From: Sedimentibacter sp. zth1 | Lineage (GTDB): Bacteria > Bacillota > Clostridia > Tissierellales > Sedimentibacteraceae | DNA: 64,000 nucleotides | Assembly: GCF_017352195.1 (NCBI RefSeq) | Contig: NZ_CP071445.1 | Span: 1,240,001-1,304,000, forward strand | Direction of reading: 5' to 3' | In this document: piece by piece, positions 29,910 through 49,943 of the stretch | Layout of the letters: each line of letters starts with the position of its first letter | Numbering within the stretch: the first letter of the stretch is position 1 | Program-made: the position numbers and the translations under genes | Notes under the pieces: model-generated | Databases searched by the model: none | Told to the model about the DNA's origin: nothing | Seen by the model: the letters and a program-made list of their open reading frames with translations, nothing else

Positions 29910-30953
29910 TTATTCAGCTAAGTAATTTTCAAAATTTTCGCTATACTTAATTTCACCATCATTTAGTATCCACAATGCTTCTACATTTTCCAATTCACTT
30001 ATAAACTTCATACTATCTTCTAAAGGCATGTTATAAGCAGCTGTTGAATATGCATCTGCAAGTCCAGAATCATCACAAAGAATTGATACAGATTTATAAT
30101 AATTAGATGGCATCAATGTATCTTTGTTAATGATATGATGATACTTAATTCCACCCGCCACATAGTATCTTTGATAATTTCCACTCGAAACTAATGACTT
30201 GTTTTCTAATGAAACTAATTTAATATTTTTCTGTTCGCTACTCATATCGGGATTTTGTATACCTATCTTCCATGGCTCATTATCTGCCTTTATTCCAATA
30301 GTACAAATATTTCCACCTACACTAAGTGCTCCTGAAACAAATCCTTTTTTATATACATCATCAGCCACCCTTTGAGTTGCAAAACCTTTTGCAATTGCTC
30401 CAACATCAATTTGCATTTTGCTATCTTTTAAATAAACAGTTGAATTTAATTCATCAATTATTAAGTTATTTATATCAACATGTTTTGAAGCTTCCTTCAA
30501 GACATCTATATCTGGAATTTTAGCACTTTCTGGATTGTTAATACCATCTTCACGAAAATCATGCCATATAGAAAGAACACTACCAAAAACAATATTTACA
30601 TTTCCATCTGTATCATTGTATAAATTCTTTCCTAAAACAAGTAAATCAATTATTTTTTTATCTACTTTAACAGGTTCAATACCCGCCTTTTTATTTATTG
30701 TCTTAATATTATTAATACCTTCATAATCATTGTAAATATCATATAATTTATGATATATTTCCAATTCATCATGAATAAACTGTGAGTATTCTTTAAATTC
30801 ATTTTCATCGCGTGCGTATCCTATTATTGTTGTTACTGTATCAAATAAATTTAAAAATTCTGCCTGGTATCTACTGATTTTGCTGTTATTACATCCTGTA
30901 AATAAGGTAAGTAATATTAATACTATTAAGCTCTTAATTAGTATATTTCTCAA
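29910..30953 (-). CDS. apbE: FAD:protein FMN transferase lipoprotein (ApbE/FmnB-like)
   Basis: 347 residues. A lipoprotein signal (lipobox LFTGC, about residue 21) places it outside the membrane. ApbE motifs: NLFDTVTTIIGYA (substrate loop), the glycine-rich DVGAIAKGFATQRVADDV (about 175), GNICTIGIKADNEPWKIGIQNP, and the metal-site region DDSGLADAYSTAAYNM. It attaches FMN from FAD to Thr/Ser of exported flavoproteins with Mg2+. Downstream of, and on the same strand as, the lipoprotein, EetB-like and EetA-like genes, so those are its likely clients. A hairpin separates it from the lipoprotein gene. Confidence 0.92.
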   Translation of the reverse strand: MRNILIKSLIVLILLTLFTGCNNSKISRYQAEFLNLFDTVTTIIGYARDENEFKEYSQFIHDELEIYHKLYDIYNDYEGINNIKTINKKAGIEPVKVDKKIIDLLVLGKNLYNDTDGNVNIVFGSVLSIWHDFREDGINNPESAKIPDIDVLKEASKHVDINNLIIDELNSTVYLKDSKMQIDVGAIAKGFATQRVADDVYKKGFVSGALSVGGNICTIGIKADNEPWKIGIQNPDMSSEQKNIKLVSLENKSLVSSGNYQRYYVAGGIKYHHIINKDTLMPSNYYKSVSILCDDSGLADAYSTAAYNMPLEDSMKFISELENVEALWILNDGEIKYSENFENYLAE

Positions 30954-30981
30954 TATATAACCCCTTTACCATACTAGATAA

Positions 30982-31009
30982 AACGAGTACAGTTATTTCT
31001 GCACTCGTT
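30982..31009 (-). terminator. Hairpin between the lipoprotein gene and apbE
   Basis: AACGAGTACAG (30982-30992) pairs with CTGCACTCGTT (30999-31009) with one G-T pair, followed on the minus strand by TTATC. It could be a partial terminator lowering apbE relative to the upstream lipoprotein gene. Confidence 0.6.
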
Positions 31010-31029
31010 ATTTTTAAAAATTGTTTAAT

Positions 31030-32070
31030 TTATTTTGCTGTTTCAATAGCTTTTACTATTGTATTAATCATTGTATTTACTTTCATTGTACAAGAAGATG
31101 TTAAATCTGCATCTGTAGCAACATTTTCTTCTAAAGCAATGTTTTGAACATCACTTTGAGTTTTTCCTATTACATATTTTGAAAAAGCATCAGCTTGTTC
31201 GAACCATTCTTTACCTATAGCAGATACTTTACCCATACCATAATCTGCTCCTAATTCAACTTTTGATTTAACTTGAGAATTTAAATCAGCTGTAATTTTT
31301 CCTGTAGCATCAAAAGTTACAGTTCCTTGAGAAGCATCTATTACACAGCTTGAAATTTTTCCATCAGCGTCTGTAGTAATTACAGAGTATGTAGAGTAAG
31401 CTTGAGCTTGTCCATCAGTGTCTGTTTCAGCATCTCTTGATTTATTCATAGTAGTTACTACTGATAATCCTAATTTATCTGAAGATTCAGCTCCTAATTC
31501 TTGAGCATTAGCAACAGCTTTTTCGATAGCATTTACATAACTATTAATTTTAACTGTAACTGATGAAGTTAAATCAGCATCAGTAGGAACACCTTGTTCG
31601 TCAACAGATATAGCTTTGATTTCTTCTACTGTTTTTCCAACAACAAAATCTGCTAAAGCTTGAGCTTGTTCATTCCATTCTTTACCTATAGCAGATACTT
31701 TACCCATACCATAATCTGCTCCTAATTCTAACTTAGTTTTGAATGTCGTAGCTAAATCAGTTACAACTTTTCCCTCGTTAGAAAATTCCATTTTTGATTG
31801 AACTGTATCTATAACACATTTAACTATTTTACCATTTGAATCTACAGTAACAGCTGCAACAACTGAATCTGCTTGTGCCATTCCATCTGTATCTTCTTCT
31901 GGTTCTCTAGATTTATCCAAAGTTGTTATAATACCTAAACCAGTTTTTACGCTTTCAACGTTTGAATCGTTGTTTGCACTTGTATCTTTTGCATCATTTT
32001 CCAAACCACACCCAACTAGCATTGTTAAAACAAATAACAAGCTTAATGCTAATGCAATTTTCTTCTTCAT
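31030..32070 (-). CDS. Two-domain lipoprotein of a flavin/electron-transfer locus (PplA-like position)
   Basis: 346 residues. Lipobox LVGC (about residue 22), then two tandem domains of about 145 residues (roughly 46-200 and 205-346). Both contain the 18-residue block ELGADYGMGKVSAIGKEW and end with TDADLTSS followed by a helix. Placement beside ApbE, EetB-like and EetA-like genes matches the two-domain flavoprotein PplA of Listeria. The usual [ST]GA[ST] FMN-attachment motif is absent; the DADLTSS threonine or serines sit at a similar C-terminal place and are the only candidates. It may be a diverged flavinylated electron carrier or an unrelated surface protein. ATG at 32070 follows GGAGG. 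Confidence 0.6.
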   Translation of the reverse strand: MKKKIALALSLLFVLTMLVGCGLENDAKDTSANNDSNVESVKTGLGIITTLDKSREPEEDTDGMAQADSVVAAVTVDSNGKIVKCVIDTVQSKMEFSNEGKVVTDLATTFKTKLELGADYGMGKVSAIGKEWNEQAQALADFVVGKTVEEIKAISVDEQGVPTDADLTSSVTVKINSYVNAIEKAVANAQELGAESSDKLGLSVVTTMNKSRDAETDTDGQAQAYSTYSVITTDADGKISSCVIDASQGTVTFDATGKITADLNSQVKSKVELGADYGMGKVSAIGKEWFEQADAFSKYVIGKTQSDVQNIALEENVATDADLTSSCTMKVNTMINTIVKAIETAK

Positions 32071-32094
32071 AATTTCCTCCAAGAATAATTTTTT

Positions 32095-32637
32095 TTATTT
32101 AAAACCCAACCCATTTAAGAAAGGCAAAATAAACTTTAATAATGTCGATGTTACAATTCCAGCTAATACTCCTGAAATTAATAACACTGGTAAATAGAAC
32201 AATAAGTTCATACCCACATATATTATAGAAATTGCTATGTATTGTCCTATATTATGAAATACAGCACCAAAAATGCTCAAAATCAAATAGGATATTTTAT
32301 CTTTGAATATACTAATTAGCAATATCATAACTAAAACAGACATCAAACCTCCACAAAGGCTTAACATTCCAGCAACTACCCCTCTAGTCATAACACCAAA
32401 CAAGGCTTTTAAAACAACTAAAATAATCGCAGTAGACTTGTTTATAAAAAACAGTGTATACATAACCACAATGTTTGCTAAACCAAATTTAATGCCAGGT
32501 ACAGGTATAGGCAAAGGTGGAAGCATGTTTTCAACTACTGAAAGTATCAAGGCAATTGCAAATAATAAAGCTGTTATAACTAATTTTTTTGTACTATTAG
32601 GCTTTAAACCTAACAATCCTGTATTTTTTTGTTTCAT
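32095..32637 (-). CDS. Gx-transporter/heptaprenyl-component-I-like membrane protein (EetB-like)
   Basis: 180 residues with about five hydrophobic segments after a short positive N-terminus. Signatures of the Gx transporter family are ENMLPPLPIPVPGIKFGLAN (residues 42-61) and ATSTIL-like small-residue helices near the end. The same family includes EetB of the Listeria extracellular electron-transfer locus and ECF-type S components. It would sit in the membrane with the EetA-like protein to pass electrons from the quinone pool to the outside; that role is inferred from context. It starts 15 bases after the EetA-like gene and ends 24 bases before the lipoprotein gene. Confidence 0.75.
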   Translation of the reverse strand: MKQKNTGLLGLKPNSTKKLVITALLFAIALILSVVENMLPPLPIPVPGIKFGLANIVVMYTLFFINKSTAIILVVLKALFGVMTRGVVAGMLSLCGGLMSVLVMILLISIFKDKISYLILSIFGAVFHNIGQYIAISIIYVGMNLLFYLPVLLISGVLAGIVTSTLLKFILPFLNGLGFK

Positions 32638-32652
32638 AAACTTTACCTCTTA

Positions 32653-33042
32653 TTATCTAGCAATCATATCTAAGTCATCTTTACTACGAGAATGCTTAGG
32701 TACAATTTTAAGTATAATTTTATTTGGTAAGCAAGCTGCACTTTCCCCAACACGTCTTAATTTACCTGAACGTATACAGACTTTATCAGGACAATCCGAT
32801 TCTTCAAAACAAATTGAACCATCCTTAAACAAATGAAATACTACATGATTATTTTGAGGTATACTAAATGTCTTATCAATTTTTTTATCTAAATCTACAG
32901 TCATTACCAAATCCTGATTGTAATATATTTCTGCTATTGGTAATTTGGTTTGTGAAAAATTTAACCGCATAATATAAATTAAAAGTGCCATCATTAGAAC
33001 AGCAAAAATTATGACAATATCTCTTTTATTTACTAATTTCAT
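32653..33042 (-). CDS. NusG domain II-containing membrane protein (EetA-like)
   Basis: 129 residues. One N-terminal membrane segment (about 9-27), then an outside NusG_II domain with the conserved pattern SDCPDKVCIRSGKLRRVGES and AACLPNKIILKI. This is the hallmark of the small proteins paired with Gx transporters, EetA in Listeria. The cysteine pattern C-x4-C...C could bind or form a redox or disulfide unit. First gene of the four-gene unit EetA-EetB-lipoprotein-ApbE. A Crp-type operator and promoter lie just upstream. Confidence 0.8.
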   Translation of the reverse strand: MKLVNKRDIVIIFAVLMMALLIYIMRLNFSQTKLPIAEIYYNQDLVMTVDLDKKIDKTFSIPQNNHVVFHLFKDGSICFEESDCPDKVCIRSGKLRRVGESAACLPNKIILKIVPKHSRSKDDLDMIAR

Positions 33043-33075
33043 AAAATAAAAATTCCCTTCTTGTTATCCAACAAG

Positions 33076-33125
33076 CATATACAGTATAAAACTTAAGTTT
33101 TCATTTGTATGTAACAAATATCACA
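33076..33125 (-). promoter_or_regulatory. Predicted class II Crp/Fnr-type promoter of the eetA-like operon
   Basis: Minus strand: TGTGATATTTGTTACA (33125-33110) fits TGTGA-N6-T[CT]ACA with one mismatch. Its centre is 41.5 bases upstream of the start point expected from the -10 box TATACT (33088-33083). No good -35 box is present, as usual when a Crp/Fnr protein bound at -41.5 replaces it. The crp/fnr gene lies immediately upstream. Confidence 0.5.
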
Positions 33126-33131
33126 TACAGA

Positions 33132-33794
33132 TTAATCAAAAAATTTTTTGAGCCTAATTTTATCTATAATTTCTATCTTTCCTCTACTTAATTGAACAAT
33201 TTTCCTTAATTGTAACTGCTTTAAAATTCGACTAACTACTTCTCTAACTGAGCCTATGTCCTTAGCTAATTTTTCATGAGTTATAATAACACAATTATTT
33301 AAATTCAAACTACTATATCGCAATAGTGCTGAAACTAATCTTTGTTCTACTGTCATAAAAGCATAGTTAGAAAATATACTAACTACATCTACTAACCTAG
33401 ATGAAATTATGTCATAAGTAAATTTATTTACATAATCATTACGCTCATTTATTTCTTTATATATTGATATTGGTATAACATAAACAGTAGAATCCTTTTC
33501 TGCTTCTATATTAATGTTTACGTCTAACTGTTTTATCATGCAAATAATACTGAATACGCATATTTCATTATTAGTAATCCTAAATAATGTAATTTCTTGT
33601 CCTTTATCGGAGTTTATAAAAGCCCTAATCATACCAGTTTTGACTATGTTTAATCCTTCGCACTTAACATCAACGTTATTTTCAATATTATTTTCACTGA
33701 TTTTTTTTTGCTTTATATTTTGCATTACTAACTGTTTATCATCCTCCGCTAATTGTGCCCAAAACGGTAGACAATTTGATAAAAATTTCTCCAT
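33132..33794 (-). CDS. Crp/Fnr-family transcriptional regulator
   Basis: 220 residues. N-terminal cyclic-nucleotide-type beta barrel (residues 1-120), long dimer helix (FTYDIISSRLVDVVSIFSNY), and C-terminal winged HTH with ITHEKLAKDIGSVREVVSRI. The recognition helix has the R-E-x3-R pattern of Crp, which contacts TGTGA. No N-terminal FNR four-Cys cluster; two Cys lie in NEICVFSIICMI. ATG at 33794 follows GAGGTG; the GTG at 33803 is inside it. It probably controls the downstream electron-transfer genes and perhaps nfnAB, whose upstream regions carry TGTGA-like sites. Confidence 0.85.
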   Translation of the reverse strand: MEKFLSNCLPFWAQLAEDDKQLVMQNIKQKKISENNIENNVDVKCEGLNIVKTGMIRAFINSDKGQEITLFRITNNEICVFSIICMIKQLDVNINIEAEKDSTVYVIPISIYKEINERNDYVNKFTYDIISSRLVDVVSIFSNYAFMTVEQRLVSALLRYSSLNLNNCVIITHEKLAKDIGSVREVVSRILKQLQLRKIVQLSRGKIEIIDKIRLKKFFD

Positions 33795-33902
33795 AAAGCT
33801 CACCTCATATTTTTAGTCAATAATAATTTATGATGTTTTGAATAAATAATACACATTTTAAAATATTCTTTATTAAAATAATAAACATTAATTATTAGCA
33901 AA

Positions 33903-33984: not shown

Positions 33985-35367
33985 TTACTTATTTGATAAA
34001 TATTCATGTATTCCTTTAGCGCCTTTTTTACCTGCTTCCATAGCTAGAATAACTGTTGCAGCACCTGATACAGCATCTCCACCAGCGAAAACAGCTTTTT
34101 TAGTTGTTTCTCCATATTCATTTGCAATTATGCATTTACGCTTGTTCAAATCTAAACCTTTAGTAGTTGAAGATATTAATGGGTTTGGAGAAGTTCCAAG
34201 AGCCATTATTACTGTATCAACCTCTAAAATAAATTCAGAATCTTTTATTTCAATAGGTTTTCTTCTTCCTGATGCATCTGCCTCGCCAAGTTCCATTTTC
34301 ACACATCTTAATCCACTTACCCAACCATTTTCATTAGATAAAATTTCTTTTGGATTTGTTAATATGTCTAAAATGATACCTTCTTCTTTAGCATGATGAA
34401 CTTCTTCAGCTCTTGCTGGTAATTCTTTTTCACTTCTTCTATATACGATGTGAACCTCAGCACCAAGTCTTTTTGCAGTTCTTGCAGCATCCATAGCAAC
34501 ATTTCCGCCACCTACAACTGCTACTATTTTACCAGCAATAATTGGTGTATCATAATCTTCTTTATAAGCTTTCATTAAATTACTTCTTGTTAAATATTCG
34601 TTTGCTGAAAATACACCATTTGCTAATTCCCCTGGTATTCCCATAAATTTAGGAAGTCCTGCACCTGATCCTATAAATATAGCCTCATAACCTTCTTCTT
34701 CAAATAATTGATCTATTGTTACTGATTTACCTATAATAACATTAGTCTCTATCTTAACACCTAATTTTTTAACATTTTCTATCTCAGCATGTACTACTTT
34801 TTCTTTTGGTAAACGGAATTCTGGAATACCATATACTAAAACTCCACCTGGTTCATGTAAAGCTTCAAATATAGTAACTTCATAACCCATTTTTGCTAAG
34901 TCTCCAGCACATGTTAATCCAGCTGGTCCAGCACCTATAACTGCAACTTTTTTACCATTAGTAGTTTCAGGTTTTTCAGGAACGAAACCATGTTCTCTAG
35001 ACCAGTCAGCAACAAATCTTTCTAATTTGCCTATTGAAACTGGTTCTCCTTTAATTCCTCTAATACATTTACCTTCACATTGTGATTCTTGAGGACATAC
35101 ACGTCCACAAACTGCTGGCAATGCAGATGATTTAGCAATAATTCTTGCTGCTTCTTCAATATTTCCAACTTTTACTTGTTGTATAAATCCTGGAATATCT
35201 ATAGAAACTGGACATCCTTTAACACATTGTGCATTTTTACAGTTCAAGCATCTACCTGCTTCTTCCATAGCTTCTTCTAAGTTATATCCTAAACAAACCT
35301 CTTCAAAGTTAGTAGCTCTAACTTTTGGATCTTGTTCTCTTACAGGAACTCTTTTTAAAGCATCCAT
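33985..35367 (-). CDS. nfnB: NADH-dependent reduced ferredoxin:NADP+ oxidoreductase, large subunit (GltD-like)
   Basis: 460 residues. N-terminal Fe-S region CLNCKNAQCVKGCPVSIDIP and CGRVCPQESQCEGKCIRG ligates [4Fe-4S] clusters. FAD-binding VAVIGAGPAGLTCAGDLAKM (about 140) and NADPH-binding VAVVGGGNVAMDAARTAKRL (about 283) follow, and MALGTSPNPLI near the end. With NfnA it couples reduced ferredoxin plus NADH to make two NADPH by electron bifurcation. Its ATG overlaps the nfnA stop (TAATG). Glutamate synthase small subunit is the main alternative; the NfnA neighbour decides against it. Confidence 0.9.
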   Translation of the reverse strand: MDALKRVPVREQDPKVRATNFEEVCLGYNLEEAMEEAGRCLNCKNAQCVKGCPVSIDIPGFIQQVKVGNIEEAARIIAKSSALPAVCGRVCPQESQCEGKCIRGIKGEPVSIGKLERFVADWSREHGFVPEKPETTNGKKVAVIGAGPAGLTCAGDLAKMGYEVTIFEALHEPGGVLVYGIPEFRLPKEKVVHAEIENVKKLGVKIETNVIIGKSVTIDQLFEEEGYEAIFIGSGAGLPKFMGIPGELANGVFSANEYLTRSNLMKAYKEDYDTPIIAGKIVAVVGGGNVAMDAARTAKRLGAEVHIVYRRSEKELPARAEEVHHAKEEGIILDILTNPKEILSNENGWVSGLRCVKMELGEADASGRRKPIEIKDSEFILEVDTVIMALGTSPNPLISSTTKGLDLNKRKCIIANEYGETTKKAVFAGGDAVSGAATVILAMEAGKKGAKGIHEYLSNK

Positions 35368-36254
35368 TATTCGTCACCTCCACAACCACAACCACCATGG
35401 TGGTGAGTAGCTCCTTCACGCTCTTTTAATAAAGCTCTTCCTTCTTGTGTTCTGTACATTGATTGTCTTTTCATTGCTGCATCAAAATCAACTAAATGTC
35501 CGTCAAATTCTGGTCCATCAACACATGCAAATTTAATTTCATCACCTATTTGTAAACGACATGCTCCGCACATTCCAGTTCCGTCAACCATGATAGGATT
35601 CATACTTACTATTGTTTTTATACCTAATTTCTTAGTAGTCATGCAAACGAATTTCATCATAATCATTGGGCCTATTGCAACAACTACATCATAATGGTTT
35701 CCTTCGTTAACTAAATCTTCAATTACTTTTGTAACTAAACCTTTTCTACCATATGAACCATCATCAGTTGTAATATATAAATTGCCTGCTACAGCTTTCA
35801 TTTCATCTTCAAGAATTAATATATCTTTAGATTTAGCACCAACTATTACATCTGCTTTCATTCCTTTTTCATGGAACCATTTTACTTGTGGGTATACAGG
35901 AGCTGTACCAACCCCACCAGCTACAAATAATACTTTTTTATTTTTTAATTCTTCAATATCTTCACTTATAAATTCAGATGGAACTCCTAAAGGACCTACA
36001 AAATCTCTAAAGTAGTCTCCCGTTTGTAATTTAGACATTCTTTCAGTAGATGCACCAATAATTTGGAAAACTATTGTTACAGTACCTTCTTCACGATTAT
36101 AATCACATATAGTTAAAGGTATTCTTTCACCTTTCTCGTCAATTTTAGCAACTAAGAATTGACCTGGGTTACATGATTTAGCTATGTGTGGAGCTTCAAC
36201 TTCCATTTGAAATATAATATCAGATAGTTGTTTAGCCTTTTTTATCTTAAACAT
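35367..36254 (-). CDS. nfnA: NADH-dependent reduced ferredoxin:NADP+ oxidoreductase, small subunit (PyrK-like)
   Basis: 295 residues. FAD-binding ferredoxin-reductase fold (CNPGQFLVAK, GERIPLTICDYN), NAD-binding domain (VLFVAGGVGTAPVYPQVKWF, about 105), and a [2Fe-2S] site with VDGTGMCGACRLQ and IKFACVDGPEFDGHLVDF (about 220-250). The C-terminus ends with an unusual THHHGGCGCGGDE tail. Pairs with NfnB. ATG at 36254 follows an SD (GGAGG). Its 5' region has a near-consensus promoter and a Crp-like palindrome. Confidence 0.9.
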   Translation of the reverse strand: MFKIKKAKQLSDIIFQMEVEAPHIAKSCNPGQFLVAKIDEKGERIPLTICDYNREEGTVTIVFQIIGASTERMSKLQTGDYFRDFVGPLGVPSEFISEDIEELKNKKVLFVAGGVGTAPVYPQVKWFHEKGMKADVIVGAKSKDILILEDEMKAVAGNLYITTDDGSYGRKGLVTKVIEDLVNEGNHYDVVVAIGPMIMMKFVCMTTKKLGIKTIVSMNPIMVDGTGMCGACRLQIGDEIKFACVDGPEFDGHLVDFDAAMKRQSMYRTQEGRALLKEREGATHHHGGCGCGGDE

Positions 36255-36322
36255 ATTTCTTACCTCCGTATAAATATACACTAAGTATAACTTGATTTTT
36301 TATTATAATAAACAGCGGTTTC

Positions 36323-44565: not shown

Positions 44566-45003
44566 TCAAATAGATTGAATTCCCATTCCGATAGCTTCGT
44601 GTTCAAATCCTTTTCTTGGTGACCCAATCTGTCCATATAATACTACTGAAATCCATTCACCGCTTGATTTATCACCTAATATTAGATTACCCCGAACAAC
44701 AGCAAATGTCAACCCTGCTGTTCTCTGCAGCTCTCCTAAAATCACTTGTCCTCTGCAATAACCACTTAATGATTCAATAATTGCATGATATAATGAATGC
44801 TCTTCATGGTAATTTTCTCTAATTATATCTTCTCTGAGCGATGCAGTTTCAATTGCTGCTACAATTTTTTGTGAATCCATGCTTCCAACATTGCCTCTGT
44901 ATATAGTATACCCATATTGCTCATATTTTTCTTTCAGTTTTTCGTAATCATCGCTAATTGTTAAAAGTATCGATATTTTACCAATACCAACTGTATCTGA
45001 CAT
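44566..45003 (-). CDS. hutP: HutP, histidine-responsive antiterminator
   Basis: 145 residues that match Bacillus HutP from end to end: IGKISILLTISDD, GNVGSMDSQKIVAAIETASL, HSLYHAIIESLSGYCRGQVI, RTAGLTFAVVRG, ISVVLYGQIGSP, KGFEHEAIGMGI. The metal/histidine-binding His residues are kept (HxxxH in HSLYHA and the His in FEHEA). HutP binds histidine, Mg2+ and UAG-rich RNA to undo termination in hut mRNA. Here it lies at the far end of the cluster rather than first. ATG at 45003 follows GAGGTG. No clear UAG-triplet array was seen in nearby leaders. Confidence 0.95.
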   Translation of the reverse strand: MSDTVGIGKISILLTISDDYEKLKEKYEQYGYTIYRGNVGSMDSQKIVAAIETASLREDIIRENYHEEHSLYHAIIESLSGYCRGQVILGELQRTAGLTFAVVRGNLILGDKSSGEWISVVLYGQIGSPRKGFEHEAIGMGIQSI

Positions 45004-45028
45004 TATACACCTCAATAAAAATTTATTT

Positions 45029-45075
45029 CGTTTTTTATAAACTAGAAGTAGAACTTCTTTGTATATAAAAAAAAA
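45029..45075. repeat. AT-rich hairpin element between fchA and hutP
   Basis: Diverged copy of the element at 36489-36533: CG-TTTTTTATAAACTAG at the left, the shared core GTAGAACTT, and GTATATAAAAAA at the right. It can fold as an imperfect hairpin and would separate fchA from hutP on the minus strand. Confidence 0.5.
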
Positions 45076-45106
45076 GGAAAGATATTAACTCTTTCCTATT
45101 TTATCA

Positions 45107-45721
45107 CTAATATGGAGATTTGTTTAGTATTTTTTCTTCATACTCTTTAACTTTATTTTCTAATTCTTTAACTTTCTTGTTTAATCTAGAAACAAAATCT
45201 TCATCCTTTATAGAAGCAAGGTTAATCTTTGTGTTTAACAAAGCTGATAAAACTGCCGTTCTTGACATCATTGCAGAAACTAATCCATCTGTCACAGCAC
45301 TTTTATTTCCTTCATTAACTACTTCTTCAGCTAAAGGCATAATTTCAAAAGCATCACAAGCAATTTCATAAGGAACAGTAGCAGCTATTTTAAGACCAGC
45401 TTGCATTTTTTCAGTTCTTAATTTTTTCTCTTCATCTGTATTTTTTGGTAATTTCATCGCTATCATAACATCATTAAATGAATCACTATCTCTTTGAATA
45501 TCATCTAATAATCTATCTCTTAACTCGGCAGCTTTTTTAGAAACTGCTTTCATGTCACATTCAACCTCAACATATTTTTTCTTACCAATAGTTAGGTTTG
45601 CAACCATTTCTGCAAGTGCTGCGCCTAAGGCTCCACTAACTGCAGCAATACTTCCACCACCAGGAACTGGTTCTGCAGAAGCAGTTTGTGCTGCAAAATC
45701 AACTACTTTCATATTTTTCAT
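45107..45721 (-). CDS. fchA: Formiminotetrahydrofolate cyclodeaminase / methenyl-THF cyclohydrolase
   Basis: 204-residue all-helical protein of the FTCD C-terminal family: VVDFAAQTASAEPVPGGGSI, AAVSGALGAALAEMVANLTI, GKKKY, and IAATVPYEIACDAFEIMPLA. It converts 5-formimino-THF to 5,10-methenyl-THF and ammonia, directly after FtcD. Some relatives hydrolyse methenyl-THF to formyl-THF instead. SD GGAGG. It starts 37 bases after hutI in the hutU-ftcD-hutI-fchA unit. Confidence 0.92.
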   Translation of the reverse strand: MKNMKVVDFAAQTASAEPVPGGGSIAAVSGALGAALAEMVANLTIGKKKYVEVECDMKAVSKKAAELRDRLLDDIQRDSDSFNDVMIAMKLPKNTDEEKKLRTEKMQAGLKIAATVPYEIACDAFEIMPLAEEVVNEGNKSAVTDGLVSAMMSRTAVLSALLNTKINLASIKDEDFVSRLNKKVKELENKVKEYEEKILNKSPY

Positions 45722-45758
45722 ACTATTTTCCTCCGAAACATATTAAATTCATTAATAA

Positions 45759-47003
45759 TTATAAAGTCAAAACTTTACCATTTTTGATTACTGTTTCTAC
45801 AATATTAACTCCAACGTGATAAGGCAAAAAATTTATGGATGGATATTCTAATATTATTATATCAGCTTTTTTACCAACTTCAAGGCTCCCTATTGTGTCT
45901 TGTCTATTAACAGCTACTGCAGCATTGATTGTAAGTGCTGTTATAATTTCTTCAATTGATAATTTCATTTGTATAGCAGATACCGCTATCAATAATGGTA
46001 TTGAATTTGAAAAACAGCTACCAGGATTTAAATCAGTTGCCAAAGCTACCGCACAGTTATTGTCAATCATATATCTTCCTCTTGCATATTCCTCTTTTAA
46101 AGAGAAAGCAGTGATTGCTAATAAAGTGCTTATTACACCACTTTGAGCCATAGCTTTAATTCCATCATCTGATGCCTGCAATAGATGATCAGCACTTGTT
46201 GCATGCAACTCAGCTGCAAGTTCTGCACCACCCAATTGATATATTTCATCAGCATGAATTTTAAGTTTAAAGCCCATATCTTTTGCAGCTTGTAGAAATC
46301 TTCTTGACTGTTCTATACTAAATACATTTTTTTCACAGAATATATCTGCAAACTCAGCTAGGTGCTCTTTTTTTACAATTGGCATTACATCCTTAATCAA
46401 AAAATCTAAAAATTCTTCTTCTTTGCCCTTATACTCTGGAAGCACACTATGTGGTCCTAAAAATGTAGATACTATATCAATAGGCTCACTTTCATTTAGC
46501 ATCTTCATTGCTTTTAACTGTTTTATCTCTGTATCAAAATCTAATCCGTAACCACTTTTTCCTTCAACTGTAGTTACACCAAACTGCATCATTTTTTTTA
46601 GTCTTTTTCTTCCACTTTCAACTAAACTATCAAGTGTTTCTTGTCGTGTAGCTCTTACAGTATTGGTGATACCACCACCTCTTTGCATAATTTCCATGTA
46701 AGTATCTCCTCTTAGTCTCCATGAAAATTCGTCTGCTCTGTAGCCACCAAATATAAAATGTGTATGTGAATCAATAAATCCTGGCAATACAGCCTTATCT
46801 TTTGCATCTATAACTTTATAATCTTTTTCGTTATACTCTGATAAAATCTCATCAGTACTTCCAACAGCAATAATTATGCCATTTTCAACAACTAATGCAC
46901 CATTTTTTATCATGCCTATATCTGACATTTCTTTTCCATGCTTTGGAAAGTTACCTTTACAGGTAACTAATTCCGAAGCATTTTTTATTATAAGTTTATT
47001 CAT
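45759..47003 (-). CDS. hutI: Imidazolonepropionase
   Basis: 414-residue amidohydrolase opening the imidazolone ring to give N-formimino-L-glutamate. Seen: metal site DSHTHFIFGGYRADEFSWRL (about residue 78), RGGGITNTVRATR, TTVEGKSGYGLD, DIFCEKNVFS, KIHADEIYQLGGAELAAEL (about 255) and ALATDLNPGSCFSNSIPLL, all diagnostic of HutI. SD GAGG. 13 bases after ftcD. Confidence 0.96.
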   Translation of the reverse strand: MNKLIIKNASELVTCKGNFPKHGKEMSDIGMIKNGALVVENGIIIAVGSTDEILSEYNEKDYKVIDAKDKAVLPGFIDSHTHFIFGGYRADEFSWRLRGDTYMEIMQRGGGITNTVRATRQETLDSLVESGRKRLKKMMQFGVTTVEGKSGYGLDFDTEIKQLKAMKMLNESEPIDIVSTFLGPHSVLPEYKGKEEEFLDFLIKDVMPIVKKEHLAEFADIFCEKNVFSIEQSRRFLQAAKDMGFKLKIHADEIYQLGGAELAAELHATSADHLLQASDDGIKAMAQSGVISTLLAITAFSLKEEYARGRYMIDNNCAVALATDLNPGSCFSNSIPLLIAVSAIQMKLSIEEIITALTINAAVAVNRQDTIGSLEVGKKADIIILEYPSINFLPYHVGVNIVETVIKNGKVLTL

Positions 47004-47016
47004 ATTAAACCTCTAA

Positions 47017-47907
47017 TTATAATCTAGTTTCCAATACTTGATCCATACTAAAGTTCTCAATTCTTAAATAGTATTCTGCACTATTTATCAATGCTTGCAT
47101 TGGTACAAGTCCTATAACCTCACTACCAACTACATTAACACCGTATCTTTGAGCTTCCATTTTTACTGTTTCAAATACTCTATATACTGCTGATTTGGTA
47201 TAATCCGTTAAATTCATAGATACTTGAACTATTCCTCTTTCTTCTAATTCAACACCCATAGCTTTTACAAATCTAAAACCGCCACCAATATGTCTAACTT
47301 GTCTAGCTATTTTATCTGCTATAGATAAATCATTAGTTGCTAAGTTTATGTTAAATGCTACTAAAGGCATTCTTGCTCCTATTGCAGTTACACCAGCAGT
47401 TGGATGTATTGTTTTAGGTCCAAAATCTGGTACCCACTTAGACTCCTTCATTTTTTCTGCCATTCCTTCGAATTGACCTTTTCTAATAGTTGCAAGATTT
47501 TCTCTGTGTTTAGCTGTAGCAGATTTTTCATATAAGAAAAATGGTACCCCAAATTTTTCAGATGCTTCTTTTGCTACATCCTTAGCTAATTTATCAGCTT
47601 CTTCTACAGTTACATTTTTTATTGGAATAAATGGAACAACGTCTACTGCACCCATTCTTGGATGTTGTCCTTCATGTTTTGTCATATCTATTAATTCTAC
47701 CGCTTTACCAATAGCTTCAACCATTGCATTCTTTAATTCTTCTGGTTCTCCAACTACTGTAACAACACATCTGTTGTGATCTTTATCTGTACTGTAGTCC
47801 AATAATTTTATATTTTCCTTTGCTCTGAAGCATTGAACTATTTGTTCAACTTTATATAAGTCTCTACCTTCGCTAAAATTAGGCACGCATTCTACTATTC
47901 TATTCAT
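47017..47907 (-). CDS. ftcD: Glutamate formimidoyltransferase
   Basis: 296 residues, the N-terminal transferase half of the two-part eukaryotic FTCD as a separate protein. Seen: IVECVPNFSEGRDLYKVEQI, LLDYSTDKDHNRCVVTVVGE, HEGQHPRMGAVDVVPFIPI, the signature of the family. It transfers the formimino group of formiminoglutamate to THF and frees glutamate. ATG at 47907 follows GGAGG, 12 bases after the hutU stop; a GTG at 47919 overlaps that stop. Confidence 0.95.
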   Translation of the reverse strand: MNRIVECVPNFSEGRDLYKVEQIVQCFRAKENIKLLDYSTDKDHNRCVVTVVGEPEELKNAMVEAIGKAVELIDMTKHEGQHPRMGAVDVVPFIPIKNVTVEEADKLAKDVAKEASEKFGVPFFLYEKSATAKHRENLATIRKGQFEGMAEKMKESKWVPDFGPKTIHPTAGVTAIGARMPLVAFNINLATNDLSIADKIARQVRHIGGGFRFVKAMGVELEERGIVQVSMNLTDYTKSAVYRVFETVKMEAQRYGVNVVGSEVIGLVPMQALINSAEYYLRIENFSMDQVLETRL

Positions 47908-47918
47908 AATTTCCTCCA

Positions 47919-49943
47919 CTATTTGTTGTAATTTCTAAATGTATTTTCTATTAAATCGTCACTTGCAACATACGGTATAGTTATGTGATCTTTACCATTT
48001 GTGATTTTATTATAATCAACAGTTGTTTCAATTGAATGTTCACATCTTGCCCAAGATCTTCTTGAAACTCCTATCATAACATCCCATGGTATTGATTTCA
48101 TCAAAATATCATCAACTCTCTTGCTACCGTCAAGAACCATACCAAATCCACCATTGATAGCTTTGCTGATACCAACTCCACCACCATTATGAAGTGCTAC
48201 CAAACTCATACCTCTTGCCGCATTACCTGCGTAACATTGAATAGCCATATCTGCAGTTATATTGCTACCATCTTTTATATTTGAAGTTTCTCTATATGGT
48301 GAATCAGTTCCACCTGTATCATGATGATCTCGACCAAGCATAACAGGTCCAATCTCTCCATTTCTTACCATTTCATTGAATTTAAGTGCAATATCACGTC
48401 TGCCATAAGCATCTTGATATAAAATTCTGCATTGTGTTCCAACTACAAGTTTATTCTTTTCAGCATCCTTAATCCACATATAGTTATCTCTATCTTGCCC
48501 TCTTCTGTTAGGATCTATTATTTCCATAGCTGCATGATCTGTTTTTCTTAAATCTTCTGGTTTACCACTTAAGCAACACCATCTAAATGGTCCATATCCA
48601 TAATCAAATAGCATAGGTCCCATTATATCTTCAACATATGATGGAAATATAAAGCCTTCACTTGTATCTACACCATTTTTAGCTATTTCTTTTGCACCGG
48701 CATCAAAGCATGCTCTCATAAATGCATTACCATAGTCAAAGAAGTATGTTCCTTTTTCAACTAATGCTTTTACCAAATCAAAATGGTGTTTCAACGAAAC
48801 ATTTACCATCTCTTCAAATTTTTCTTTACTGTTTGCAAGCATTTCTGTTCTTTGTGCAAATGAAAGTCCTTGTGGACAATATCCTCCATCATAAGGAACA
48901 TGGCATGATGTTTGGTCAGATAATAAATCTATTTTTATATTATTTTTAACTGCATATTCAAGTAAATCAACAATATTGCCGTGATATGCAATTGATATTG
49001 TTTGTTTTTTATCCATATATTCTTTAGCAATTTTGAAGCATTCTTCTATACTTTCACTACATTTAGATACCCAGCCTTGATCAAGTCTTGTTTTAATTCT
49101 TGAATAATCAACTTCTGCTATAATACCTACTCCATTTGAAATTTCAACAGCTTTTGGTTGAGCTCCACTCATTCCACCAAGTCCTGATGTAACAAATAAA
49201 TGTCCTCTTAAGTCTCCATCTTGAGGAATACCTAAAACTTTTCTGCCTGCATTTAATAGTGTATTGAATGTTCCATGAACAATTCCTTGTGGCCCTATAT
49301 ACATCCATCCACCAGCAGTCATTTGTCCATAGCTTGATACTCCCATAGCTGTTGCTTTTGACCAGTCATGTGGATTATCAAACATTCCTATCATTAGACC
49401 GTTTGTAATTACAACTCTTGGACTTGTCTTTGATGATTTAAACAATCCCATAGGATGTCCTGACATCATAACAAGTGTTTGTTCATCTGTTAATTGTTCA
49501 AGATATTTTTTAATAAGTTGATATTGCATCCAGTTTTGACAAACCTGACCTGTTTCTCCATATGTAACTAATTCATAAGGATAAAGTGCTACATTATGGT
49601 CAAGATTATTATCAATCATTACTTGAAATGCTTTACCTTCAACACAATTTCCTTTATATTCATCTATAGGCTTACCGTAAATTCTTTCTTTGGGCATAAA
49701 TCTATAACCATAAATTCTCCCTCTTGTCATTAGCTCATCAAGAAATTCAGGCGCTAATACTTCGTGTAATTCTTCAGGTACATATCTTAAAGCATTTTTA
49801 ACTGCAAGTTTAATTTCTCTATCAGTTAAAAATAATTCTCTCATTGGAGCTCTTCTTATTTCTTCTTTAAATGTTGGATACTCAGGTAGTATACTATCTA
49901 ATTTGATTGTCATAGCATCAGATATACTAGTGTTATTTACCAT
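47919..49943 (-). CDS. hutU: Urocanate hydratase
   Basis: 674 residues, the long form found in some clostridia and in animals rather than the 550-residue Bacillus form. NAD-binding and active-site segments: QNWMQYQLIKKYLEQL, MSGHPMGLFKSSKTSPRVVI, YIGPQGIVHGTFNTLLNAG, FVTSGLGGMSGAQPKAVEI, DQTSCHVPYDGGYCPQGLSF, GRDHHDTGGTDSPYRETSNI. It adds water to urocanate to give imidazolonepropionate. SD AGGAGG. First gene of the unit; HutH (histidine ammonia-lyase) is not in the window. Confidence 0.96.
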   Translation of the reverse strand: MVNNTSISDAMTIKLDSILPEYPTFKEEIRRAPMRELFLTDREIKLAVKNALRYVPEELHEVLAPEFLDELMTRGRIYGYRFMPKERIYGKPIDEYKGNCVEGKAFQVMIDNNLDHNVALYPYELVTYGETGQVCQNWMQYQLIKKYLEQLTDEQTLVMMSGHPMGLFKSSKTSPRVVITNGLMIGMFDNPHDWSKATAMGVSSYGQMTAGGWMYIGPQGIVHGTFNTLLNAGRKVLGIPQDGDLRGHLFVTSGLGGMSGAQPKAVEISNGVGIIAEVDYSRIKTRLDQGWVSKCSESIEECFKIAKEYMDKKQTISIAYHGNIVDLLEYAVKNNIKIDLLSDQTSCHVPYDGGYCPQGLSFAQRTEMLANSKEKFEEMVNVSLKHHFDLVKALVEKGTYFFDYGNAFMRACFDAGAKEIAKNGVDTSEGFIFPSYVEDIMGPMLFDYGYGPFRWCCLSGKPEDLRKTDHAAMEIIDPNRRGQDRDNYMWIKDAEKNKLVVGTQCRILYQDAYGRRDIALKFNEMVRNGEIGPVMLGRDHHDTGGTDSPYRETSNIKDGSNITADMAIQCYAGNAARGMSLVALHNGGGVGISKAINGGFGMVLDGSKRVDDILMKSIPWDVMIGVSRRSWARCEHSIETTVDYNKITNGKDHITIPYVASDDLIENTFRNYNK

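What the first reader, a model, noticed from the sequence alone, without database searches (positions are those of the whole stretch)
29910..33794. Possible EET-like flavin electron-transfer locus with a non-canonical lipoprotein
The order EetA-like, EetB-like, two-domain lipoprotein, ApbE mirrors flavin-based extracellular electron transfer loci (EetA, EetB, PplA, FmnB in Listeria), but without Ndh2 and the quinone genes. The lipoprotein lacks the [ST]GA[ST] FMN-attachment motif. Each of its two domains instead has T-D-A-D-L-T-S-S at the matching C-terminal position. This may be a new flavinylated domain type or a different cofactor carrier served by ApbE.
Basis: partly seen in the sequence, partly recalled or inferred. 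Interest (0 to 1): 0.75.

Follow-up and report, generated by a model that had tools for sequence, protein, structure and literature searches.

The report
Overlooked flavin-carrier lipoproteins with altered motif
The lipoprotein is a strongly diverged relative of a known bacterial surface protein (PplA) that carries flavin to pass electrons out of the cell; it has an altered attachment motif but keeps the threonine that would hold the flavin, and it belongs to a large clostridial family that standard annotation misses.

Summary
In detail: Crp/Fnr regulator, EetA-like, EetB-like, two-domain lipoprotein, ApbE, all on the minus strand. The lipoprotein has no [ST]GA[ST] motif and both domains carry TDADLTSS. 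The suspected attachment residues are wrong, however. Alignments put D-L-T-S-S-V-T (domain 1) and D-L-T-S-S-C-T (domain 2) in register with canonical D-x-x-[ST]-G-A-[ST]. The domain is a diverged FMN-bind2/PplA domain (hhalign probability 98%), not a new cofactor fold. The family occurs in 41 of 398 sampled Bacillota genomes, matches no Pfam or NCBIfam family, and has ApbE next door in 70 of 80 loci. In 27 of 80 it fills the PplA slot of a complete Ndh2-PPS-UbiA-EetA-EetB-lipoprotein-ApbE operon. Its ApbEs group apart from others. Four genomes encode one ApbE (in this locus) and no FMN_bind, NqrB/RnfD or DUF2271 protein. The window genome lacks Ndh2 and UbiA. Best reading: a reduced flavinylation cassette loading two FMNs on a PplA-like carrier through a rewritten motif. 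Flavinylation itself is untested.

The parts
31030..32070 (-). Two-domain lipoprotein (346 aa): diverged PplA/FMN-bind2-type carrier
   Evidence: Translation; SD GGAGG before ATG at 32070; AlphaFold pLDDT 92.9, pTM 0.87; profile homology
31555..31575 (-). Domain 1 motif D166-L-T-S-S-V-T172; predicted FMN acceptor codon T172 at 31555-31557
   Evidence: Aligned with DAISGAT/DAIAGVS by MAFFT, HMMER and hhalign; acceptor column T154/S6/N1
31087..31107 (-). Domain 2 motif D322-L-T-S-S-C-T328; predicted FMN acceptor codon T328 at 31087-31089
   Evidence: Same alignments; Cys at -1 is rare (2 of 161)
29910..30953 (-). ApbE flavin transferase (FmnB-like) with lipobox TGC; member of the lipoprotein-associated ApbE group
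   Evidence: PF02424 E 7.6e-65; S257, R262, H273, D300 retained; tree
32095..32637 (-). EetB-like ECF-S-type subunit, predicted FAD exporter
   Evidence: PF07456 E 1.8e-36; function from Listeria EetB, PMC9973259
32653..33042 (-). EetA-like NusG_II membrane protein, role unknown
   Evidence: PF07009 E 2.1e-23; eetA/eetB synteny in 3,328 genomes, PMC9973259
33132..33803 (-). Crp/Fnr-type regulator just upstream, possible regulator of the cassette
   Evidence: PF13545 E 2.4e-11; adjacency only
30982..31009 (-). Hairpin between the lipoprotein and ApbE genes (possible transcript-processing or attenuation element)
   Evidence: RNA fold -18.1 kcal/mol, z -3.4 against shuffles

Best explanation
The locus is a reduced clostridial flavinylation cassette related to Listeria-type flavin EET operons. 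EetB (with an ECF-T/ATPase module encoded elsewhere) exports FAD; the lipid-anchored ApbE transfers FMN from FAD to the lipoprotein; the lipoprotein is a PplA-like pair of FMN-bind2 domains that each take one FMN on the Thr of D-L-T-S-S-[VC]-T (T172, T328) and then relay electrons at the cell surface. Shown: gene order, homology, motif register, acceptor conservation, operon context in relatives, a distinct ApbE group, absence of Ndh2 and UbiA from this genome. Inferred: FAD export, covalent FMN, the acceptor residues, electron carriage. In this species the electron donor is unknown; Rnf, which is present in the genome, is the most plausible source.
For: Homology: the family profile hits one PDB sequence, 2kzx (A3DHT5, SGAT), E 1.7e-4, with SSVT on SGAT; hhalign with PplA-like domains probability 98.1, E 1.2e-13; single-domain AlphaFold model pLDDT 95.7, best structural realignments 3o6u Z 8.6 (108 of 120 residues, 3.0 A), 2kzx 7.7, covalent-FMN domain 8p2a 7.3. 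Acceptor: T or S in 160 of 161 domains, D/E at -6 in 161 of 161. Motif continuum in PplA-like proteins of the same order, mostly in EET-type loci: SGAT, AGAT, SGAS, SGVS, TGVS, AGVS/AGVT, ASVT. Precedent for a lost G or A: C. tetanomorphum RnfD Thr153 lies in DGVTTAT, A. woodii RnfD Thr156 in DTVTTAT and RnfG Thr185 in QAITGST, all modelled with covalent FMN (sequences; PMC9588780 and PMC11889175); G to A and A to V each still gave about 50% flavinylation, T to A none (PMC12052999). Context: ApbE within 800 bp in 70 of 80 loci; 27 of 80 complete Ndh2-PPS-UbiA-NusG-Gx-lipoprotein-ApbE operons. Sole-client genomes G074, G086, G101, G105: one ApbE, in this locus; no PF04205, PF03116 or PF10029. 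Separate ApbE group with catalytic residues intact.
Against: No biochemical evidence. No Pfam match to FMN_bind in any of 62 members. The Gly of the canonical motif is almost never kept (7 of 161), and the double change G to S plus A to V has not been tested in any paper read here. One domain (L140 domain 2) has Asn at the acceptor. Ten of 80 loci have no ApbE next door. Foldseek alone ranks IscU-like folds, not FMN_bind, on top, and the best Z of 8.6 is modest. In relatives L031-L034 and L038 the same protein also has a canonical FMN_bind domain, which could be the ApbE client there. The window genome also has Rnf, so its ApbE could have another client. The four sole-client genomes are MAGs and may be incomplete.
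Confidence: 0.76

Rival explanations
1. Flavinylation has been lost: the domains keep the FMN-bind2 fold but hold no covalent FMN (empty scaffold or loose flavin/quinone binder), and the ApbE serves Rnf or other clients.
For: Canonical Gly and Ala both replaced in nearly all members; the window genome has RnfG and RnfD and a second ApbE; some relatives carry an extra canonical FMN_bind domain in the same protein.
Against: Acceptor S/T and D/E at -6 stay conserved in 160-161 of 161 domains; four genomes have one ApbE beside this gene and no FMN_bind, RnfD/NqrB or DUF2271; a separate, co-inherited ApbE group.
Confidence: 0.15
2. One reading: FMN is attached to a Thr or Ser within DADLTSS (T168, S169, S170).
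For: These residues are near the right place and partly conserved, S170 in 147 of 161.
Against: Every alignment puts them at -4 to -2 from the acceptor; T168 is variable (T, A, V, K); S169 is A in 45 of 161.
Confidence: 0.04
3. The domain is an unrelated fold carrying another cofactor, with ApbE adjacent for other reasons.
For: No Pfam or NCBIfam match above cut-off; Foldseek alone lists IscU-like folds first.
Against: Profile match to FMN-bind2 domains with 98% probability, intermediate sequences with graded motifs, FMN-binding structures rank 1, 2 and 4 after realignment.
Confidence: 0.05

Closest known systems
PplA of the Listeria flavin-based EET system (FMN-bind2 pair)
   Same: Surface lipoprotein with two ~155-residue domains; encoded with EetA, EetB and ApbE/FmnB, in relatives also Ndh2 and quinone genes
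   Different: D-x-x-[SAT]-[SGT]-V-[TS] instead of D-x-x-[ST]-G-A-[ST]; not recognised by PF04205; own ApbE group; window genome lacks Ndh2 and UbiA
FMN-bind2 subtype described in PMC11334425 (2024)
   Same: About 160 aa, occurs in even numbers (2; 4 in L033), predicted sheet-to-sheet pair
   Different: That work describes [S/T]GA[S/T]-like sites; the passages read here do not describe an SSVT family
A3DHT5 of Clostridium thermocellum (PDB 2kzx)
   Same: Only PDB sequence matched by the family profile (E 1.7e-4)
   Different: Canonical DAISGAT motif
Clostridial RnfD/RnfG covalent FMN sites
   Same: Covalent FMN on Thr in motifs lacking the Gly (DGVTTAT, DTVTTAT) or the Ala (QAITGST)
   Different: RnfD is a membrane protein of another fold; no site there has both changes

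Membership tests
FMN_bind domain (PF04205 / FMN-bind2) | Match to the Pfam model above its cut-off | tested here: not met
   0 of 62 members; canonical relative L037 matches at 1.6e-9, SGVS intermediate L036 does not
FMN_bind domain (PF04205 / FMN-bind2) | Sequence-profile homology to known FMN-bind2 domains | tested here: met
   hhalign probability 98.1, E 1.2e-13; 2kzx E 1.7e-4
FMN_bind domain (PF04205 / FMN-bind2) | FMN_bind fold | tested here: met
   Single-domain model: 3o6u Z 8.6, 2kzx 7.7, 8p2a 7.3; modest Z, Foldseek alone did not rank them first
FMN_bind domain (PF04205 / FMN-bind2) | D-x-x-[ST]-G-A-[ST] flavinylation motif | tested here: not met
   DLTSSVT and DLTSSCT; 79 of 80 relatives have no canonical motif
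FMN_bind domain (PF04205 / FMN-bind2) | Ser/Thr acceptor at the aligned position | tested here: met
   T154/S6/N1 of 161 domains
FMN_bind domain (PF04205 / FMN-bind2) | Covalently bound FMN | not testable with these tools
   Needs mass spectrometry or in-gel fluorescence
Listeria-type flavin EET system | ApbE/FmnB and EetB FAD exporter encoded with the carrier | tested here: met
Listeria-type flavin EET system | Ndh2 | tested here: not met
   Not found in the window genome (only a partial match at 4e-5); present in 42 of 80 relative loci
Listeria-type flavin EET system | Demethylmenaquinone prenyltransferase (UbiA/DmkA) | tested here: not met
   No PF01040 in the window genome; present in 41 of 80 relative loci
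Listeria-type flavin EET system | ECF-T subunit (FmnA) | tested here: inconclusive
   None in the locus; one CbiQ/EcfT gene elsewhere at genome position 140421-141083, role unknown
Listeria-type flavin EET system | Reduction of extracellular acceptors | not testable with these tools
   Needs culture assays

The most novel reading that the evidence does not exclude
A second flavinylation code: a dedicated ApbE subfamily has co-evolved with a Gly-free acceptor motif (D/E-L-x-[SAT]-S-V-T) and modifies a large family of surface lipoproteins that PF04205- or SGAT-based censuses miss, accounting for part of the orphan apbE genes.
Probability: 0.4. Interest if true: 0.75.

Novelty: new variant of a known kind. 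Interest (0 to 1): 0.6.

Why it matters
Surveys of bacterial flavinylation rest on PF04205 and the [ST]GA[ST] motif; the eLife 2021 survey (PMC8238504) found 17% of genomes in its dataset with an ApbE but no FMN_bind protein. This family, found in about 10% of sampled Bacillota genomes and unseen by Pfam, is a concrete candidate client for part of those. It would extend the count of clostridia with EET-type surface electron carriers, loosen the accepted ApbE motif, and offer a possibly orthogonal ApbE/tag pair. The stepwise motif series (SGAT to SSVT) makes motif drift directly testable.

Tried and rejected
Pfam, NCBIfam and phmmer-to-PDB on the single protein gave nothing usable; only profiles worked. 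Whole-protein fold search blurred the two repeats, so one domain was predicted alone. Foldseek E-values gave mainly IscU-like folds on top; taken as shared topology, not function, since profile homology points to FMN-bind2. The idea that DLTSS itself is the site was rejected on alignment. The idea that EetA/EetB are the electron conduit was dropped after PMC9973259. A plasmid-collection search gave one hit (Acetoanaerobium, 51% identity) with no annotated feature.

Full report
What is there. On the minus strand of the window lie a Crp/Fnr regulator (33132-33803), an EetA-like NusG_II protein (32653-33042), an EetB-like Gx/ECF-S protein (32095-32637), a two-domain lipoprotein (31030-32070) and an ApbE (29910-30953). 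The lipoprotein starts at ATG 32070 behind GGAGG and has 346 residues. It has no match above cut-off in Pfam or NCBIfam and no [ST]GA[ST]. Residues below use the 346-aa numbering; the table is numbered from an upstream TTG, four residues higher.

Motif register. MAFFT of lipoprotein domains with two canonical or near-canonical PplA-like proteins, a HMMER profile against the PDB (only hit 2kzx, E 1.7e-4) and hhalign against 19 PplA-like domains (probability 98.1, E 1.2e-13) agree: D-L-T-S-S-V-T stands on D-A-I-S-G-A-T. The residue on the flavinylated Thr is T172 (domain 1) and T328 (domain 2). Over 161 domains from 81 proteins this column is T 154, S 6, N 1; -1 is V 159, C 2; -2 is S 147, G 7, T 5; -6 is D 131, E 30.

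A graded series. PplA-like two- and four-domain proteins of the same order, mostly in EET-type loci, read SGAT, AGAT, SGAS, AGAS, SGVS, TGVS, AGVS, AGVT and ASVT. The Pfam model sees the SGAT member (1.6e-9) but not the SGVS member tested. The SSVT family looks like the end of that series.

Is a motif without Gly and Ala chemically credible? Covalent FMN has been modelled in C. tetanomorphum RnfD at Thr153 (PMC9588780), which lies in D147-G-V-T-T-A-T153 by the deposited sequence, and in A. woodii RnfD at Thr156 and RnfG at Thr185 (PMC11889175), in DTVTTAT and QAITGST. In C. tetanomorphum RnfD no in-gel fluorescence was seen, so that case rests on the cryo-EM model. The ApbE review (PMC12052999) reports that G to A and A to V each leave about 50% flavinylation, D to A matters little, and T to A abolishes it. 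The double change is untested in the papers read.

Fold. AlphaFold of the whole protein: pLDDT 92.9, pTM 0.87; one domain alone 95.7. Structural realignment of the single domain ranks 3o6u Z 8.6, 2kzx 7.7 and the covalent-FMN domain 8p2a 7.3 at places 1, 2 and 4. CO dehydrogenase medium subunits (7.5) and IscU proteins (about 6) are close behind and Foldseek alone prefers IscU, so the fold evidence supports, but does not by itself prove, the assignment.

Genomic context. A scan of one genome per species returned at least 311 relatives; 80 loci were kept. ApbE lies within 800 bp in 70 of 80; within 6 kb, Ndh2 is found in 42, polyprenyl synthase in 43, UbiA in 41, EetB in 39, EetA in 37; 27 loci hold all of Ndh2, PPS, UbiA, EetA, EetB, lipoprotein and ApbE (UbiA, Ndh2 and PPS identities checked). 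Contig ends make these lower bounds. 41 of 398 Bacillota genomes drawn evenly have the domain.

Who is the ApbE client? In 51 genomes with the lipoprotein all have ApbE. Four (G074, G086, G101, G105; loci L093, L119, L099, L121, all with complete EET operons) have a single ApbE, the one beside the lipoprotein, and no FMN_bind, NqrB/RnfD or DUF2271 match. There, the lipoprotein is the only visible client. They are MAGs, and Flavodoxin_4 or FMN_red clients were not tested.

ApbE. In a tree of 102 ApbEs, the 78 encoded beside members of this family fall on one side, and 24 others (from the same genomes, from PplA-like loci, and the second ApbE of the window genome) on the other; the reported best split (71 of 73) has support of only 0.66 and rooting is by midpoint. 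The catalytic Ser, His, Asp and Arg are invariant in both groups; group-specific changes include T-G to T-L after the HHI motif and an inserted loop with an invariant Arg. This fits a co-inherited, perhaps re-tuned enzyme; re-tuning is inference.

The window genome. It has Rnf with RnfG and RnfD, a second ApbE about 10 kb from them, one clear ECF-T gene, but no Ndh2 and no UbiA. In Listeria, EetB is the FAD-exporting ECF-S subunit required for PplA flavinylation, while deleting eetA had no EET phenotype (PMC9973259). What remains here is thus FAD export, transfer and carrier, without the quinone-linked entry. The electron source is unknown; three relative loci have Rnf genes beside lipoprotein-ApbE (L118, L139, L145), which makes Rnf a reasonable guess.

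Verdict. The system works like, and is related by descent to, a Listeria-type EET flavinylation module. By strict membership it is neither a canonical FMN_bind protein (motif and Pfam not met) nor a complete EET locus (Ndh2 and UbiA not met). It is a new variant of a known kind. I put 0.76 on covalent FMN at T172/T328.

Noticed in passing
30982-31009: Strong hairpin (-18.1 kcal/mol, z -3.4) between the lipoprotein stop and the ApbE start; could set the lipoprotein:enzyme ratio.
   Followed up: partly
L031 5930-7327, L033 5787-8147: Relatives with an N-terminal canonical FMN_bind domain (AGAT) fused to two or four SSVT-type domains, next to ApbE and a ~740-aa secreted protein of unknown role.
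   Followed up: partly
L043, L069, L074, L087, L097: In Sedimentibacter relatives lipoprotein-ApbE is followed by a pair of ~600-aa ABC exporter half-transporters; possibly another flavin route, or unrelated.
   Followed up: no
L118, L139, L145: Lipoprotein-ApbE beside Rnf genes.
   Followed up: partly
L066 4764-5708 and 5708-6298 (own genome Rnf): Own RnfD reads DAVATAT and RnfG EALGGAT: the clostridial Rnf flavinylation motifs are themselves non-canonical.
   Followed up: partly
33985-36281: NfnAB-like pair (460-aa glutamate synthase-like flavoprotein and 304-aa FAD/NAD subunit) directly upstream of the Crp/Fnr gene.
   Followed up: partly
44566-49943: Histidine-degradation type cluster (urocanase, imidazolonepropionase, formimidoyltransferase, cyclodeaminase by eye).
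   Followed up: no
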